Below are positions 37,201-44,686 of a stretch of 64,000 nt of DNA, one piece after another. Position numbers and translations under genes: made by a program. The notes below the pieces were generated by a model that saw nothing but the letters and a program-made list of their open reading frames with translations, made no database searches and had not been told where the DNA came from. Source of the stretch: a virus; IMG/VR virus record IMGVR_UViG_3300036804_000088, positions 1 through 64,000 of that record; one strand, 5' to 3'. Numbering within the stretch: the first letter of the stretch is position 1; each line of letters opens with the position of its first letter.

Positions 37201-37392
37201 ATGACCGACCAACCATTAGAGGCCACCCTTCCCAACGTCGGTTCCATCCTCGCCGGGGTGCAAAAGGCACTTGCTGAAGGCATCTCGGTAGCGGAGATGG
37301 CCGAAAAAGTGCTGGCCTTCGTGTCGCCTACCGACGCGGCGGCGCTGGAAACACTGATCAAGGTGTTGCAGGAAGCGCAGAAACTCTTATGA
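37201..37392 (+). CDS. Small helical protein between LysA and LysB (63 aa)
   Basis: AAGGAAA precedes ATG 37201. The product is Ala/Leu/Val-rich with two amphipathic helices (VGSILAGVQKALAEGISVAE and ALETLIKVLQEAQKLL) and no true membrane segment. Its stop overlaps the LysB start. It belongs to the lysis cassette by position; function unknown. Confidence 0.6.
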   Translation: MTDQPLEATLPNVGSILAGVQKALAEGISVAEMAEKVLAFVSPTDAAALETLIKVLQEAQKLL

Positions 37393-38135
37393 CGCTCACG
37401 ATATTCAGCATCAACGGCTTCGGCGGCAACATGTGGGCCGGGCCGCAAGCCGAAGTGGCGCAGTACCTTTCGAACCAGGGATTGAACCTGGCATACTGGC
37501 AGCCCATCGGCTACAACAGCGGCGCATTCCCGCTGTCTATCGGTGTGAACAGCGGCCTGGCTGAACTGAAAAACCAGCGTGCCCAGCATCCCGGCCCCTA
37601 CCTGATCTCCGCATGGTCGGAGGGTGCAATCATTTCGGAACTGTATCTGCAACAGGACAAGTCCGGCGACTGTAAAGGCGGCGTGATGTACGGCAACCCG
37701 TACCGCGCCGCCGGCCAGTGGAACCCTATCGCACCAGCTCTGGGCGCGGTGCCCGATCCCGGTGGGGCTGGCATCGGTGGTCCGCGGAACAACTGGCGGA
37801 CACCGGATTCCGTTCACCATTACTGCCACGGTCCGAATCAGCCGTCGTATGACGGCAAGCCGGGCGTCGACATGTATACCTGCTGCCCGACGAACGGTGT
37901 CGGCGTCGTCATTCGGATCATCTTCGATTTCGTGCTGACGCAGTGGACCGGTGAGATATTGGATCTGTGGCTGTTCGGCGAAGAGTTGATCACCAGCGGG
38001 GCGCACGCAGCACTCGACGTCACGCAGGCCATCATCATGGCTATCAGTTTCTACGGCGGTCAGACCAAACCACACGTCGATTACGACTCCTACGCCGGGA
38101 AGACTTACCTCGCGAACCTCGCGAGATCGCTGTAA
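37389..38135 (+). CDS. lysB: LysB, mycolylarabinogalactan esterase
   Basis: The 248-aa alpha/beta hydrolase opens TIFSINGFGGNMWAGPQAEV and has the nucleophile Ser77 in SAWSEGA (a G-x-S-x-G variant with Ala first), an Asp candidate in KPGVDMYTC (Asp161) and His229 in KPHVDYDSY. This is the cutinase-like LysB family that frees the mycolic acid outer layer from arabinogalactan, needed for efficient lysis of mycobacteria. It strongly indicates a mycolic-acid-bearing host. Confidence 0.92.
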   Translation: MTLTIFSINGFGGNMWAGPQAEVAQYLSNQGLNLAYWQPIGYNSGAFPLSIGVNSGLAELKNQRAQHPGPYLISAWSEGAIISELYLQQDKSGDCKGGVMYGNPYRAAGQWNPIAPALGAVPDPGGAGIGGPRNNWRTPDSVHHYCHGPNQPSYDGKPGVDMYTCCPTNGVGVVIRIIFDFVLTQWTGEILDLWLFGEELITSGAHAALDVTQAIIMAISFYGGQTKPHVDYDSYAGKTYLANLARSL

Positions 38136-38180: not shown

Positions 38181-38357
38181 ATGTTCACTCAAGACGAGCG
38201 TGCCGAAATTCGGATATTGTTCTACAACGAACTGGTCTGTATTCACAAGGCTATGCTGAAAGCCGGTTCGTATCATTACCTTTGCCTGGTAGACGGCAAA
38301 GTTGTCTATACTCATTCGCCGATTGGTAAAGTCATCTGGCATACGCCGTGGCTATAA
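38181..38357 (+). CDS. Small hypothetical protein (58 aa)
   Basis: The frame MFTQDERAEIRILFYNELVC... runs without stop to 38357 and ends overlapping the next GTG start. It has a helical N-terminus and a beta C-terminus with LCLVDGKVVY. The ribosome site is poor, so this is a modest call; continuity of coupling to the next gene is the main support. Confidence 0.5.
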   Translation: MFTQDERAEIRILFYNELVCIHKAMLKAGSYHYLCLVDGKVVYTHSPIGKVIWHTPWL

Positions 38358-38875
38358 TAGACTGGACGAACGTCGCGCCGGTTGTCGCCGCCGTTCTGGG
38401 GTTTGTCGGTATCGTCGTCGGAGCGCTGGCGGATCGCCGGGCGAAGGAACGCACCGCCAGCGCTCAAATCGCCGTCGCTAAGGCGCAAGAGGCCGCTGTG
38501 GCAGCGCAAGCGGCAGCGCAGCAGCTCGCGGCGAAAGCCGCCGATAAGGCTGCCGAAGCGGCGGCACAAACCGCGGAAGCCGAAATGCGCAAAGCTGTTG
38601 CGGCGGAACGCGAAGCGCAAGCCAGACAGTGGGCGCAGATCACCGAAGGCATGCAGAAATGGAACATGAGTTTGCAGGACGATATCAAGGAAAACTCGCG
38701 CCGTATCGATGACGCCGAACTACGGGCCGAAGCCGACAGGGAACGCGCCGACCGTAACGAGCGGTTGTACTCGCGAGCAATCATCTACTTGCGCAAGCTG
38801 ATCCGCTGGATAGACGACGTCGTACCGGGTGAAGAGTATCCGACGATCCCGCCTGAGCTGAAGGTAGATCTGTGA
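38348..38875 (+). CDS. Membrane-anchored coiled-coil protein (175 aa)
   Basis: GTG 38348 starts MAIIDWTNVAPVVAAVLGFV, one membrane segment (about residues 9-28), followed by a ~110-residue Ala/Glu/Lys coiled coil and a short C-terminal domain with LIRWIDDVVPGEEYPTIPPE. Proteins with one N-terminal segment and a long helix follow LysB in several mycobacteriophages and may act as holin partner or spanin-like lysis protein. That role is inferred from place and shape. Confidence 0.7.
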   Translation: MAIIDWTNVAPVVAAVLGFVGIVVGALADRRAKERTASAQIAVAKAQEAAVAAQAAAQQLAAKAADKAAEAAAQTAEAEMRKAVAAEREAQARQWAQITEGMQKWNMSLQDDIKENSRRIDDAELRAEADRERADRNERLYSRAIIYLRKLIRWIDDVVPGEEYPTIPPELKVDL

Positions 38876-38958
38876 GTTTGCTTGGCGCGGTCGCGCTTTG
38901 GTTGACGATAATCGTTGTGGTGGTACCGATATTCGCCTATGTGGCGCACCGCCGATGA
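38872..38958 (+). CDS. Single-pass membrane microprotein (28 aa)
   Basis: GTG 38872 overlaps the previous stop. The product MSLLGAVALWLTIIVVVVPI... is a single hydrophobic helix with a basic end (AHRR). Very small one-segment proteins sit in lysis cassettes and can modulate holins. The coupling and clean hydrophobic profile support it. Confidence 0.6.
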   Translation: MSLLGAVALWLTIIVVVVPIFAYVAHRR

Positions 38959-38973
38959 CGAGTTGACCTAGAA

Positions 38974-40035
38974 ATGGCAGGGTTTGCGGCGCTGCCACCT
39001 GAGATCAATTCGGCGCTGATCGAGACCGGCCCCGGCCCGGCCCCGCTGATCGCAGCCGGCGTGGCGTGGCGCAGTCTGGCCGCAGAACACCACGCGGCAG
39101 CGGCGCAATGGAGTTCGATCATTGCGTCGATACCGTGGCAGGGTTCGGCGGCGCAGGCTATGCGGGCCAACGCTGCGGCGCAGGCAGCGTGGATGCAGCA
39201 GGCTGCCATGCACGCTGAGTTGTCGGCAACGCAGGCGCAGCTCGGGGTGTCGGCGTTCGAAGCGGCGCGCGCGGCTATGGTGCCGCTGGCCGCGGTGACC
39301 GCCAACCGGGCGCAGCTCGCGATGCTGATAGCCACCAACCTGTTGGGGCAGAACACCGCGGCTATCGCTGCGACCGAAGCCCAGTACGGAGAGATGTGGG
39401 CGCAGGACGTGACCACCATGGCCGGGTATCAGGTGGCGTCGGCTGCTGTGACCGCGGCGCTTCCGGCCCCGCCCGCCCCGCCACCGTCGCCGCTGCCCGG
39501 CGGGATCATCGGGTTTCTGAACGGGCAGGGTGTCGGCGGGATACAAGGGCTGGGGCTGCTGATCGAAGAGTATGGCACATCGATTGTGTCCAGTTCCCCG
39601 GTGTCGACGCTGCTGGCGCTGCTGGCGATAGCGCAGGATCAGCAGCAGACGCAGCAGCAGTCGTCCGGCAGTCCGTCCGATGAGCGCCGCGCGGAGCCGT
39701 TCGCGGGCAGGGGCATGCCGATTATCAGCCCGGCCGGCTTCGCTGCGTCCGCGGGGATGGGTGACGCGCCGCAACTCGGGCGTCGGGTCAGCGTGCCCGC
39801 CAGTTGGACACAGGCCGCGGGGAAGCCGCCAGCGGCGGTGCCGGTCGAGTTGGCCGCGTCGGTGTCACCGCTGGCCGGCGAAGGGGTGGGGTTGCCGGTG
39901 CTGCCGTTCATGCCGGTAGCCGGGACGTCATCGCGCGCGCCGGACACCAGGAAAGAGAAGCCGAAGCCCGCGGGGTGTGAGGCGCCGCTGGTGGCGTTGC
40001 GCCCGCCGGTGGGCGGCTACAATTCGTCACTGTGA
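38974..40035 (+). CDS. PPE family protein (PPE-SVP subgroup)
   Basis: The 353-aa product begins MAGFAALPPEINSALIETGP, the PPE hallmark. It has the W-x-G turn at Trp55-Gly57, the conserved LGQNTAAIAATEAQYGEMWA (125-144), and in the C-terminal half the SVPxxW motif (SVPASW, 273-278) followed by Pro/Val-rich sequence. In mycobacteria PPE proteins pair with PE proteins and leave the cell through ESX secretion. No PE gene is beside it. Codon use looks richer in GCG/GCC than its neighbours, suggesting capture from a host. It follows the lysis genes and precedes a new promoter. Confidence 0.93.
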   Translation: MAGFAALPPEINSALIETGPGPAPLIAAGVAWRSLAAEHHAAAAQWSSIIASIPWQGSAAQAMRANAAAQAAWMQQAAMHAELSATQAQLGVSAFEAARAAMVPLAAVTANRAQLAMLIATNLLGQNTAAIAATEAQYGEMWAQDVTTMAGYQVASAAVTAALPAPPAPPPSPLPGGIIGFLNGQGVGGIQGLGLLIEEYGTSIVSSSPVSTLLALLAIAQDQQQTQQQSSGSPSDERRAEPFAGRGMPIISPAGFAASAGMGDAPQLGRRVSVPASWTQAAGKPPAAVPVELAASVSPLAGEGVGLPVLPFMPVAGTSSRAPDTRKEKPKPAGCEAPLVALRPPVGGYNSSL

Positions 40036-40036
40036 C
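40026..40036. promoter_or_regulatory. Short palindrome at the end of the PPE gene
   Basis: GTCAC-T-GTGAC spans the PPE stop codon, 22 nt upstream of a -35 box, and is followed by a T-rich run (CTCTTTTTTATTT at 40043-40055). It could be a weak terminator for the late genes or an operator for the next promoter. Confidence 0.35.
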
Positions 40037-40058
40037 GGTAGTCTCTTTTTTATTTACC

Positions 40059-40087
40059 TTGACATGTCCCCCCACTGGGCTTACAGT
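40059..40087 (+). promoter_or_regulatory. SigA-type promoter for a leaderless transcript
   Basis: TTGACA (40059-40064), a 17-nt spacer and TACAGT (40082-40087) form a near-consensus promoter. The ATG of the next gene begins 6 nt after the -10 box, where transcription would start, so the message would be leaderless. No ribosome site precedes that ATG. Confidence 0.8.
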
Positions 40088-40093
40088 CTAGGT

Positions 40094-40537
40094 ATGAGCC
40101 AAGCAACCGAGCAGCACAAGGGTTTAACCGTCAACGTCTACCGCAACGCCCGATGGGCGCGCGAAGGTGCCGACTGCACCAATAAAGGCGCGTCCAGCCA
40201 GGTCGAAGAGTTCACAGTGGTGGGCGTCGTCCGACAGAAGCGCGGCAAGACAGTTGAACCGATGCCCCGCGGGTCGCAGGTGTTCACACCCGATGAAAAG
40301 GCACCGGCTGCCGTGCTGGTGCAAAGCCAGCTTGACGGTGCCCCGCCGCACCTGGTGCCGCTGGACGTGCATGAGTCGGGCCGCTGGTCGATGGATGGCG
40401 GCAACCTGGTCGACAGCAGCGACTCACGCTGGACGGAGGTCGTGTCGAGTTTCCTGCCCGGCAGACTGCACGTGTCGGCGGTCAGCATCCATGACCGTGT
40501 CGAGACCGCTGAGCAGTCACGCGCGCTGAGCATCTGA
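40094..40537 (+). CDS. Hypothetical protein, first gene of a leaderless operon (147 aa)
   Basis: ATG 40094 coincides with the predicted transcription start. The product MSQATEQHKGLTVNVYRNAR... is beta-rich, has a segment TVVGVVRQKRGKTVEPMPRG, and no recognised motif. It heads a run of small genes up to 41673. A high-quality promoter just after the late genes suggests expression independent of the virion genes, perhaps in the lysogen or early. Confidence 0.7.
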   Translation: MSQATEQHKGLTVNVYRNARWAREGADCTNKGASSQVEEFTVVGVVRQKRGKTVEPMPRGSQVFTPDEKAPAAVLVQSQLDGAPPHLVPLDVHESGRWSMDGGNLVDSSDSRWTEVVSSFLPGRLHVSAVSIHDRVETAEQSRALSI

Positions 40538-40940: not shown

Positions 40941-41083
40941 CAACTGATCCGGCATCGGTAACCTGGCTAATCGAACCCACCGGCGAGACTGCTATCGGTG
41001 ATGAGTTCGGCATGAAAACACTTGAGCAAGTAGAGATTTGGGTGTTTGGCGGATCTCTCGGAAAGTTTTGGAGAGAAGTATGA
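40937..41083 (+). CDS. Small hypothetical protein (48 aa)
   Basis: The start is coupled by ATGA and the stop overlaps the next ATG. The product MTTDPASVTWLIEPTGETAI... is short, acidic at first and ends with Trp/Phe/Lys residues. No family recognised. Confidence 0.55.
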   Translation: MTTDPASVTWLIEPTGETAIGDEFGMKTLEQVEIWVFGGSLGKFWREV

Positions 41084-41673
41084 GCGACGTCGACACCCAA
41101 TCGGCTGAGCCGGTCGTGGACTACCCGACGATGGCCGCGCAGCCCGCGCTGGCCTGGTCGGTCGCCGAAACGCAGCCGACACCAGCGCAGCGCCGCCCCA
41201 TGTCGCATGCCTGGACCGGGCTGCTGGCCGCGGTGATGCTCTCGGCTATCGGCCTGGCATCCTATGTACTGGCTACCGGGCACGCGCCGCCGCTGCCGCG
41301 CCCGGCAGACCCCGCGCCGGCCACAACCACGCCGGACCGACCGTTAAAAACGGCTGACCGCGCACCGGTCACGGTGACCACCACCCCGCCCGCGGTGACG
41401 GTGACCGCAGCCCCGCCCGTCGCGCCCGCCGATAAGGATCAGCGCTACCTGAATATGGTTGCCGCCGACTGGAAACCCTACGACTGGCACATCGAAGATC
41501 CCGCCCTGGTCATCCACAACGCTCACACGGTGTGCGCGATGCTGGCCGACCCTAGCCACCCCACCCGCTCGCAGGTGGCGCACGCTATCAACTCGCCTGA
41601 CAACCCGCCGTTCGGTGTAATTTCGGTGTTGGTGGCGGATGCTAATGCGGTGTACTGCCCGCAACTGGGCTGA
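41080..41673 (+). CDS. DUF732-domain membrane/secreted protein (197 aa)
   Basis: ATG 41080 has GGAGAG just upstream. Residues 44-66 form a membrane segment; a Pro/Thr/Val-rich linker follows; the C-terminal ~70 residues match DUF732: DQRYLNMV, AHTVCAMLAD, and ISVLVADANAVYCPQ with the two conserved Cys. DUF732 is a small extracytoplasmic domain common in mycobacteria and their phages. A second copy is at 46971. Confidence 0.8.
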   Translation: MSDVDTQSAEPVVDYPTMAAQPALAWSVAETQPTPAQRRPMSHAWTGLLAAVMLSAIGLASYVLATGHAPPLPRPADPAPATTTPDRPLKTADRAPVTVTTTPPAVTVTAAPPVAPADKDQRYLNMVAADWKPYDWHIEDPALVIHNAHTVCAMLADPSHPTRSQVAHAINSPDNPPFGVISVLVADANAVYCPQLG

Positions 41674-42709: not shown

Positions 42710-42721
42710 TCGGTAGATCAG
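42706..42721. terminator. Hairpin at the end of int (direct-repeat copy A)
   Basis: CTAATC-ggta-GATCAG is an imperfect inverted repeat inside a 21-nt block that recurs at 43790-43810 with two changes (ACCTCTAATC...GTAGAT.AGC). It covers the stop codons of both converging genes. Placement at the 3' end of int suggests a terminator or a retroregulator-like element; protein binding is also possible. Confidence 0.45.
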
Positions 42722-43596
42722 CAGGCGGTTCCGGCGGCTTCGCTGACCAGCCGGATTTCCGCCGACGACACCGCCGTGTACCGCTGCGTCGTCGCCACCG
42801 ACGTATGACCTAACGCCTCTTGCACCGCCCGCAGATTGTGTGTCCCGGCGTAGCCGCGGGTGGCGAACCGGTGCCGCAGCTTGTGCATGGACCACCCCGG
42901 CGGCATCACCTTGGACACCAGATGCCCGACCCGGTCGGGGCTCATGTGCCCGTCGATCTTGCCGGGGAACAGGAACCCGCCGCGCGGGCAGCCCACCACG
43001 ATGGCATTGGCCAGTGACATGGTGATCGGCACCACCCGCTGTTTGGACCCTTTGCCATGCACGATCAGCGCCGCCCCGTCGCTGCCGTTGACCAGATCGT
43101 CGGTGTGCACGCCGGCCACTTCCGCGCGGCGCAGACCGGCCTCACACGCTAGGCGTGCCATCAACACGGTGCGCGGGTCGGCTACCGCCAGCAGCTCGCG
43201 CCAGATAGCGTCGGTGGCCGGCTTGGGCGCACCGGTGGCCGCGCGCACCGGCGGCAGCTTCACGGTCGGATCGATCATCACGATGCCCGTCACCGTGACG
43301 AACCGGTAGAACGATGCCAGGCTGGCCCGCACCCCGCGGCGGTGCTCTACGGACATCTGGGGGCGTCCCAGTATGGCCAGCAGGTCATCGGCGGTGACGT
43401 CGCCGGGCTCCGCTATGCCCAGCTCGCGCGCGACAGCGCGGACATGGGAGCGCCGGGTGCGCCGGGTGGCCGCGGACGTTCCGGCGGCAACCAGCCATGT
43501 CAGCCAGGCGTCAATCGCGGTGTCCCATCCTCCCGGTAGTGTGTAAGACAGTGTGTGAATCCCCGATGAACTATTGCCCATAGTCACGGTTCGCAT
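42718..43596 (-). CDS. int: Tyrosine recombinase integrase
   Basis: I chose the ATG at 43596 because GGAG lies 5 nt before it on the minus strand; longer frames exist. The 292-aa product has a SAM-like core-binding domain (about 20-105) and a catalytic domain with Arg156 (EAGLRRAEV), a Lys in GKGSKQR, His238/Arg241 (HKLRHRFATR), His264 (ALGHTS) and Tyr273 (TTQRYTAV). It is short, with little room for an arm-binding domain. It would integrate the phage at a host attB. Confidence 0.93.
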   Translation of the reverse strand: MRTVTMGNSSSGIHTLSYTLPGGWDTAIDAWLTWLVAAGTSAATRRTRRSHVRAVARELGIAEPGDVTADDLLAILGRPQMSVEHRRGVRASLASFYRFVTVTGIVMIDPTVKLPPVRAATGAPKPATDAIWRELLAVADPRTVLMARLACEAGLRRAEVAGVHTDDLVNGSDGAALIVHGKGSKQRVVPITMSLANAIVVGCPRGGFLFPGKIDGHMSPDRVGHLVSKVMPPGWSMHKLRHRFATRGYAGTHNLRAVQEALGHTSVATTQRYTAVSSAEIRLVSEAAGTAC

Positions 43597-43791
43597 ATTT
43601 ACTCCGACGTCAGGGGCAGCGCGAGTTTCTGTGAAGACAACGCGCGTTGTCACAGGTTCACGTTCAGTAATGCACCCGAAGATGCAGGATTGCATCCGCG
43701 CATGCGGCGTTGCCGTTGCCGGTTTCTGTGAACAATCACAGTGATCTACATCTGTCCAATAGCCTGTGGATAATGCGCGCTGCGCAAACCT
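43597..43791. promoter_or_regulatory. Palindrome-rich control region upstream of int
   Basis: No gene is seen here. The segment has a perfect 16-bp palindrome GACAACGCGCGTTGTC (43636-43651), GATGCA-ggat-TGCATC (43681-43696), CTGTGA-acaa-TCACAG (43726-43741), and two direct copies of GTTTCTGTGAA (43625-43635 and 43722-43732). These are candidates for integrase or excisionase binding sites or operators controlling int. No clear promoter for int could be fixed. Confidence 0.6.
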
Positions 43792-43961: not shown

Positions 43962-44140
43962 GCTGTCCTCCCCAGTTCCTTATGTCCCAGCCACTCATAT
44001 CCGCAACCGGCGCAGCGATGCTGACCCTCATGCGTCACCCACCAGTCGGTGCCGGTGCGCGTGGCCGGCATCATGCAATGATGCACCAGCACGCCCGCGC
44101 ACGGGTGGGCGGTGTCGTAGAGCTGCATATTGCACGTCAT
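43958..44140 (-). CDS. Small zinc-ribbon-like protein in the repressor operon (60 aa)
   Basis: The start overlaps the repressor stop (ATGA). The product has several Cys/His: MTCNMQLYDTAHPCAGVLVH and HRCAGCGYEWLGHKE with a CxxC knuckle. It may be a two-knuckle metal protein. In an integrated prophage it would be separated from the repressor promoter if attP lies in the repressor gene. Confidence 0.7.
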   Translation of the reverse strand: MTCNMQLYDTAHPCAGVLVHHCMMPATRTGTDWWVTHEGQHRCAGCGYEWLGHKELGRTA

Positions 44141-44598
44141 GCTGCGTCTTTCAGGTCGTCAGGCTCCGGTGAATTGACCGGCTCATTGGGACAGAATGTG
44201 CGAGCGAACCATTCCGGCACGTTGCCGCGCCAACTCCAACCGAAGGGTTGGAGGTTCGACTCCTCCCAGGGGAGCGACTCCCCGGCGGGAACCTTCCTTA
44301 GTCGCCGGGGACCGGGATGCGGGTGGCCTGACTGTTCCGGCAGCGCCCGGTACCCCGTGGTCACATATTCATAGGAGATCCCTGCGACCCGGCAGAATTC
44401 GTCCAGCTCATCGACGTCCCACGGAATGGACCCGGTCATCCGTCGTGACAGCTTTTGTTGACTCTCCCCGGCCAACCGCGCGACCGCGGAAACGCTGAGC
44501 CCCTTGCGGGCCAGCTCTTCGCGAACACGCCGTGTAACAGCCTGGCTCCTGGTTTCACCATCGTCGCCAGCATCCACCAACATGAATGATGTACTCAT
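44137..44598 (-). CDS. HTH immunity repressor with C-terminal degradation-like tail
   Basis: The 153-aa product starts at the ATG 7 nt after a -10 box (leaderless). Residues about 17-80 are an XRE-type HTH (LSVSAVARLAGESQQKLSRR). The rest is poorly conserved-looking; residues 111-120 (WEESNLQPFG) are the antisense reading of a tRNA T-arm, and the protein ends DLKDAA, like ssrA-type degrons. This is the layout of repressors in integration-dependent immunity systems, where attP lies in the gene and integration removes the tail. Confidence 0.8.
   Translation of the reverse strand: MSTSFMLVDAGDDGETRSQAVTRRVREELARKGLSVSAVARLAGESQQKLSRRMTGSIPWDVDELDEFCRVAGISYEYVTTGYRALPEQSGHPHPGPRRLRKVPAGESLPWEESNLQPFGWSWRGNVPEWFARTFCPNEPVNSPEPDDLKDAA
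44241..44272 (+). other. attP: Candidate attP core (tRNA 3'-end-like, inside the repressor gene)
   Basis: On the plus strand GGAGG-TTCGACT-CCTCC (44250-44266) is a perfect tRNA T-arm: five paired bases and a loop fitting TTCRANY. CAGGGG follows as the start of an acceptor strand. The rest of a tRNA is absent. A tRNA 3'-end fragment next to an integrase is the usual form of an attP core. Edges given here are estimates. Confidence 0.6.
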
Positions 44599-44605
44599 GG
44601 CGCGT

Positions 44606-44633
44606 ATTTTACCTACTAAGCGAGTATCCGCAA
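44606..44633 (-). promoter_or_regulatory. Repressor promoter, leaderless
   Basis: On the minus strand TTGCGG (44633-44628), a 16-nt spacer and TAAAAT (44611-44606) precede the repressor ATG by 7 nt. There is no ribosome site, so the repressor message is predicted to be leaderless. Confidence 0.65.
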
Positions 44634-44686
44634 GTCGGTAGCCTGCCGGCCGAAAATTCACCGTTGCGACACACCCCTGACATCCC

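What the first reader, a model, noticed from the sequence alone, without database searches (positions are those of the whole stretch)
38974..40035. A full PPE-family protein carried by a phage
The sequence shows the PPE N-terminus (MAGFAALPPEINS), W-x-G, the LGQNT...EMWAQD block and the SVPxxW motif of the PPE-SVP group. PPE proteins are known as mycobacterial proteins exported with PE partners by ESX systems. A complete one next to a phage lysis cassette is unexpected. It has no adjacent PE gene and its codon use looks more GC-rich than its neighbours. Inference: a captured host gene kept as a moron, perhaps displayed by lysogens to alter the surface, block superinfection or change host interactions.
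Basis: partly seen in the sequence, partly recalled or inferred. Interest (0 to 1): 0.88.

Follow-up and report, generated by a model that had tools for sequence, protein, structure and literature searches.

The report
PPE surface-protein gene carried by mycobacteriophages
The window is a temperate mycobacterium-infecting phage with an intact gene for a PPE protein, a protein type that mycobacteria export to their cell envelope; relatives of this gene sit in at least seven other phages and prophages, and most of these copies form their own branch of the PPE tree, so it is a long-term phage cargo gene rather than a stray host fragment.

Summary
Window 38974-40035 (+) encodes an intact 353-aa PPE protein (Pfam PF00823, 1.4e-52). 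Its modelled fold matches the ESX-5 substrates PPE15 and PPE41. The record is a temperate phage (terminase, portal, tail, lysis, integrase, repressor, primase). The PPE gene is the last gene of the rightward lysis region, 4.2 kb from the predicted attP, with no PE or WXG100 partner.

It does not look like a recent capture. Intact PPE genes occur in eight further sequence types from other phages and prophages, nearly all on the lysis/late strand. Seven copies form one exclusive clade (97/94). Across 397 Mycobacterium genomes the best match is another prophage PPE. One phage copy has third-position GC of 0.49, below all 199 cellular PPEs compared (minimum 0.675). Some prophages carry PE_PGRS genes instead or as well.

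Best explanation: phage cargo encoding an envelope protein that pairs with a host PE, is exported by the host (probably ESX-5) and alters the infected or lysogenic cell's mycomembrane. Identity and phage residence are shown; export and function are inferred. Precedents: one PPE noted in M. avium prophage phiMAV_1 (2014), and prophage ESX-toxin (PEST) cassettes. I found no description of a phage-specific PPE clade in the papers I could search.

The parts
38974..40035 (+). PPE gene, 353 aa, intact
38983..39462 (+). PPE domain (residues 4-163): five-helix fold, WxG at 55-57, LL (hh-type) pair at 123-124 in the helix 4-5 loop
   Evidence: Pfam PF00823; six-frame match coordinates; AlphaFold pLDDT of 90 or more over 160 residues; PDB alignments
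39790..39807 (+). SVPASW motif (residues 273-278), degenerate PPE-SVP signature in a mostly disordered C-terminal half
   Evidence: translation; Pfam PPE-SVP not matched at E<=1; low pLDDT
35531..37168 (+). lysin A-like endolysin gene
   Evidence: phrog_317/phrog_700
37389..38135 (+). lysin B-like endolysin gene
   Evidence: phrog_102, 1.5e-34; the name lysin B is inferred from position
38348..38875 (+). membrane/coiled-coil gene of the lysis region; a homologue directly precedes the PPE gene in L002 (47% identity over 119 aa)
38872..38958 (+). 28-aa transmembrane ORF overlapping the end of the coiled-coil gene, 15 b before the PPE start
40024..40038 (+). terminator-like stem followed by a T run, overlapping the PPE stop codon
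   Evidence: consensus scan only
40059..40087 (+). sigma-70-like promoter TTGACA-17-TACAGT after the PPE gene (for the next gene)
   Evidence: consensus scan; number found not above chance for the region
42718..43695 (-). tyrosine integrase; 73-75% identical to integrases in Mycobacterium genomes G130, G209 and G245
44137..44661 (-). repressor with helix-turn-helix
   Evidence: phrog_4583/phrog_2328
44240..44275 (.). predicted attP core (tRNA 3'-end-like), inside the repressor gene
   Evidence: 35-36 b match to the sequence beside the integrase in G245 (94%) and G130 (89%)

Best explanation
The gene is a phage-resident PPE gene carried as accessory cargo by temperate mycobacteriophages. Shown: it is a true PPE with an intact secretion-type N-terminal domain, and it belongs to a phage-specific PPE clade found in several different phages. 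Supported by position: it is the last gene of the rightward lysis region, so it is probably made with the late genes. Inferred: with no PE of its own, the protein pairs with a host PE, is taken up by the host chaperone EspG (most likely EspG5) through its helix 4-5 loop, is exported by the host ESX system (most likely ESX-5), and sits in the mycomembrane or at the surface, where its disordered C-terminal half changes the envelope of the infected or lysogenic cell. The benefit could be blocking further phage adsorption, helping to breach the mycomembrane at lysis, or a fitness effect for the lysogen; these are not separated here.
For: PPE domain 1.4e-52. Model TM-score (target-normalised) 0.87-0.90 to PPE15 in the PE8-PPE15-EspG5 complex (48% identity) and to PPE41. 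The LL pair aligns with the helix 4-5 loop (hh motif) that EspG5 binds. Phage context: terminase, portal, head protease, tape measure, tail and primase genes, lysis, integrase and repressor genes, predicted attP. PPE genes in L002, L003, L083, L084-L087, L096/L097, L098 and L223. Clade of seven phage PPEs against 38 cellular and two other phage PPEs, 97/94; six of them 96/95 before L223 was added. Best match in 397 genomes is the prophage PPE of G209. L003 PPE GC3 0.493 against a minimum of 0.675 in 199 cellular PPEs. In L084, L085 and L098 the gene starts within about 5 b of the upstream ORF's end and its stop is followed within about 17 b by the next gene, leaving little room for a separate promoter. 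dN/dS about 0.49 between L084 and L085.
Against: No experimental evidence of expression, pairing, export or phenotype. Partner PE unknown; PPE proteins lack the YxxxD/E export signal (PMC7028111), so export depends on a host PE. In L223 the gene lies among replication genes, so late expression is not universal. No phage record in INPHARED carries a detectable PPE. L083 and L096/L097 fall outside the clade; one common origin for the eight phage types then in hand is neither shown nor firmly rejected (AU p 0.076). The clade rests on about 180 columns with several long branches.
Confidence: 0.6

Rival explanations
1. Late lysis helper: the PPE is made only with the lysins, is exported or inserted into the mycomembrane shortly before lysis, and helps to open it alongside lysin B.
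For: Same strand and end of the lysis region in the window, L002, L003, L083, L096/L097; inside the late operon in L084, L085, L098; terminator-like stem at the stop codon.
Against: L223 carries it among replication genes; other prophages with related lysis genes (L099, L100, L101) lack it; isolated phages lyse without it; export through a type VII system may be too slow for a lysis step.
Confidence: 0.2
2. Superinfection exclusion or other lysogenic conversion: expressed from the prophage and displayed to hide or alter a phage receptor or to improve fitness.
For: Slot between lysis genes and integrase, near a prophage end, where accessory genes sit; PE_PGRS genes occur in the same region of other prophages; prophage ESX cassettes (PEST) are expressed from at least some lysogens (PMC10654092).
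Against: No separate promoter recognised upstream in the window (the scan covers only one promoter type); operon-internal position in three prophages.
Confidence: 0.27
3. Interference with the host ESX system: the phage PPE titrates host PE partners or EspG and so changes the host's secretome, without being an effector itself.
For: Intact PPE domain with no PE partner. Host precedent: ppe38 deletions go with loss of secretion of PE_PGRS and PPE-MPTR proteins (own knowledge; the review PMC7028111, discusses these mutants).
Against: The C-terminal half is kept and intact in all copies; a pure titrant would need only the N-terminal domain.
Confidence: 0.1
4. Recent accidental capture of a host PPE gene, soon to be lost.
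For: Highest GC3 in the window phage, closer to host PPEs than to its neighbours.
Against: Nearest relatives are other phage and prophage PPEs; shared clade; intact in all copies; codon use fully adapted in L003.
Confidence: 0.04
5. Artefact: chimeric contig or host DNA at a prophage edge.
For: None found for the window; such a host flank does occur in L088.
Against: Phage genes on both sides within an otherwise full gene set; same neighbour gene in an independent contig.
Confidence: 0.01

Closest known systems
Mycobacterial PPE proteins (PF00823), especially ESX-5 substrates such as PPE15 and PPE41
   Same: PPE motif, WxG, helix 4-5 hydrophobic loop, five-helix fold, SVP-like motif in the C-terminal half
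   Different: Encoded by a phage; no adjacent PE; belongs to a separate clade of phage PPEs; 61% domain identity to another phage's PPE and at most 58% to the cellular PPEs found
PPE gene MAV_0790 of M. avium 104 prophage phiMAV_1 (PMC3986857)
   Same: A PPE gene inside a mycobacterial prophage; possibly the same kind as L084-L087 (their strain names were not shown, so this is a guess)
   Different: Reported in one sentence, not recognised there as part of a family spread over several phages
[quoted passage not shown] abscessus prophages (PMC10654092)
   Same: Prophage-borne type VII secretion substrates; PEST1/2 N-terminal dimers resemble PE25-PPE41
   Different: PEST has a WXG100 partner, a toxin domain and an immunity gene; here no PE or WXG100 partner and no known toxin domain were found; an immunity gene was not searched for specifically

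Membership tests
PPE family (PF00823) | N-terminal PPE domain above the curated cut-off | tested here: met
   178.5 bits against a cut-off of 26
PPE family (PF00823) | PPE motif near the N-terminus and WxG between helices 2 and 3 | tested here: met
   P8-P9-E10; W55-x-G57, between modelled helices 23-52 and 58-101
PPE family (PF00823) | Five-helix PPE fold | tested here: met
   Helices 9-18, 23-52, 58-101, 105-120, 128-161; TM-score 0.87-0.90 to PPE15 and PPE41
PPE family (PF00823) | Hydrophobic hh motif in the helix 4-5 loop for EspG binding | tested here: met
   L123-L124 aligned to the same loop of PPE41; binding itself not tested
PPE-SVP subfamily (PF12484) | GxxSVPxxW and the Pfam PPE-SVP region | tested here: inconclusive
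   SVPASW present with one extra residue after the G; Pfam model not matched in the window protein at E<=1, but matched above the cut-off in L002, L084 and L085
ESX-exported PE/PPE heterodimer | A PE partner encoded next to the PPE (usual but not universal) | tested here: not met
   No PE in the 66-kb record; many host PPEs also lack an adjacent PE (own knowledge)
ESX-exported PE/PPE heterodimer | Secretion dependent on an ESX system | not testable with these tools
   Needs an export assay
PEST cassette | WXG100 effector, polymorphic toxin and immunity gene | tested here: not met
   No WXG100 in the record; no known toxin domain in the PPE
Phage moron (accessory gene) | Present in some but not all related phages, at a place where other accessory genes can stand | tested here: met
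   Present in L096, L097, L098; absent from the related cassettes L099, L100, L101; a PE_PGRS gene at the matching end in L178
Phage moron (accessory gene) | Own promoter and terminator, expressed in the lysogen | tested here: inconclusive
   Terminator-like stem present, no promoter-like site upstream; operon-internal in three relatives; expression not testable

The most novel reading that the evidence does not exclude
Mycobacteriophages have evolved their own lineage of PPE proteins, handed between unrelated phages, that use the host's ESX machinery as a viral export route to remodel the mycomembrane during infection or lysogeny; phages may also have acted as carriers in the spread and diversification of PE/PPE genes.
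Probability: 0.4. Interest if true: 0.82.

Novelty: new variant of a known kind. Interest (0 to 1): 0.63.

Why it matters
PE/PPE proteins are a large, poorly understood group of mycobacterial envelope and secreted proteins, usually treated as chromosomal or plasmid genes that grew with the ESX systems. A distinct PPE lineage carried by several phages, with PE_PGRS genes in other prophages, means that phages probably use this export route and can move these genes. It also offers small, deletable systems in which to ask what a PPE does for its carrier.

Tried and rejected
Phage databases: no PPE, no PE and no homologue of the coiled-coil neighbour in INPHARED, so all comparison copies come from viral contigs of IMG/VR and prophages. 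A C-terminal 'PEYG'/basic-patch signature looked phage-specific at first, but 5 of 174 SVP-type cellular PPEs also have E-Y-G and K/R counts overlap, so it was dropped. L088 and L229 carry PPE genes but look like host flank or element edge, not phage cargo. Several cellular PPEs aligning over the full length (G016, G118, G244, G127 and others) lie in ordinary chromosomal neighbourhoods. Single origin for eight phage types: not in the best tree, AU p 0.076. Viral structure library: no match at E<=0.001. The C-terminal half is not confidently modelled. Failed calls for format reasons: 20, 49, 68, 96, 114.

Full report
What is there. The window is part of a 66,486-b virus record. It has the gene set of a temperate tailed phage: large terminase, portal, head protease, tape measure, minor tail protein and primase-polymerase, lysin A- and lysin B-like genes, tyrosine integrase, repressor and a ParB-like gene. 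GC is 60%. The portal is closest to M. abscessus prophages at about 50%, and the integrase is 73-75% identical to integrases in Mycobacterium genomes, so the host is a mycobacterium (inference).

The PPE gene. ORF 38974-40035 (+), 353 aa, no stops. Pfam PPE E=1.4e-52, residues 4-163. PDB sequence search gives PPE15 (1.9e-32), PPE41 and PPE4. AlphaFold, with 59 sequences from the window and fetched loci, gives 160 residues at pLDDT 90 or more, essentially the five-helix N-terminal domain; the C-terminal half is mostly below 50. Foldseek gives PPE15 in the EspG5 complex, PPE41 and PPE4 at target-normalised TM-scores of 0.81-0.90. The loop between helices 4 and 5 reads TNLLGQN; the hydrophobic hh motif of this loop is what EspG5 binds (PMC12209268). 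No PE or WXG100 occurs in the record.

Place in the phage. Order: lysin A-like, lysin B-like, a coiled-coil membrane gene, a 28-aa membrane ORF, PPE, terminator-like stem at the stop codon, then a promoter-like site for the next gene. About 2.7 kb on comes the integrase and then the repressor. A 36-b tRNA-3'-end-like sequence at 44240-44275, inside the repressor gene, matches the sequence beside the related integrases in G245 (94%) and G130 (89%), so it is the predicted attP. An attP within the repressor gene is the arrangement of integration-dependent immunity phages (own knowledge); phage Angel has the same order of lysin A, lysin B, integrase and repressor. In the prophage state the PPE gene would thus lie near one prophage end but inside it.

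Other phages with PPE genes. Viral contigs: L003 (61% identity over the domain), L002 (49%; its coiled-coil neighbour is 47% identical to the window's), L083 (integrase 52% identical to the window's), L084 and L085-L087 (contigs from isolate genomes by their names; the L085, L086 and L087 PPEs are identical), and L223, a different 78-kb phage with the PPE gene among replication genes next to an SSB gene. A search of 347 Mycobacterium genomes with a lysis-region marker led to two prophage copies in G127 (L096, L097) with PPE at the end of the lysis region, beside an integrase in L096, and one prophage in G209 (L098) with a PPE inside the late operon and a PE_PGRS gene close by. Three prophages with related cassettes (L099-L101) have none. 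All copies are intact. Counting L085-L087 once and L096/L097 once, there are nine distinct PPE types including the window's; L084 and L085 may be two versions in one phage lineage, which makes the number of clearly different carriers eight.

Not a recent capture. In a tree of the N-terminal domain, WIN, L003, L002, L084, L085, L098 and L223 form one clade against 38 cellular PPEs and two other phage types (bootstrap 97, SH-aLRT 94). Before L223 was added, six formed a clade at 96/95. L083 and L096 stand apart, so there was more than one capture or their placement is unresolved (AU p 0.076 for the eight then in hand). Searching 397 genomes of the genus with the window PPE, the best hit is the G209 prophage copy. 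L003's PPE has GC3 0.493, like its own phage (0.54) and below all 199 cellular PPEs compared (minimum 0.675). The window's own PPE has GC3 0.82, above its neighbours, which leaves open a later acquisition from another, GC-richer phage.

How it may work. The intact PPE domain with its EspG loop and WxG implies pairing with a host PE and export by a host ESX system, most likely ESX-5 by similarity to PPE15 (inferred). PPE proteins lack the YxxxD/E signal (PMC7028111), so a host PE must supply it. Some PPEs are thought to work as outer-membrane nutrient transporters (PMC7028111). Position on the late/lysis strand in eight of nine types, and tight spacing inside the operon in three, argue for synthesis with late genes; L223 shows that this is not obligatory. 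I put the general model (host-exported, envelope-modifying cargo) at 0.6, and do not claim which benefit applies.

Known and new. A PPE gene in prophage phiMAV_1 was mentioned in 2014 (PMC3986857). ESX-secreted WXG100-toxin cassettes in prophages are described, with PE/PPE named there as the structural comparison (PMC10654092). I found no paper in the searchable library that describes a phage clade of PPEs or PE_PGRS genes inside prophages; most subscription papers were not searchable.

Noticed in passing
L098 6908-7630 (-); L178 17430-18458 (+); L177 3-434 (-): PE_PGRS genes (Pfam PE plus PGRS) in Mycobacterium prophages: in L098 between tail and lysis genes next to a PPE; in L178 between tRNA-Lys and the lysis region (also in IMG/VR loci L230 and L231); in L177 beside the integrase at a contig end.
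   Followed up: partly
window 44137-44661, 44240-44275: Predicted attP lies within the repressor gene, the arrangement of integration-dependent immunity.
   Followed up: partly
window 41038-41673: DUF732 protein gene between PPE and integrase; small secreted-looking ORFs at a similar place in L085 (14189-14569) and L098 (15173-15529) may be alike.
   Followed up: no
L083 10880-11644 (-), L085 13539-14204 (-), L098 14441-15163 (-), L097 3902-4591 (+): A conserved gene of unknown function near the lysis region and integrase in several PPE-bearing prophages.
   Followed up: no
L223 3721-4785 (+): A PPE of the phage clade in a different 78-kb phage, placed among replication genes (RNA ligase, SSB, DNA polymerase exonuclease subunit).
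   Followed up: partly
window 40094-40537 (+): ORF directly after the promoter-like site downstream of the PPE gene; no assignment made.
   Followed up: no
L084 and L085, PPE genes from 7995: The first 130 or so residues are nearly identical while the rest differs, suggesting recombination between prophage PPE genes.
   Followed up: no
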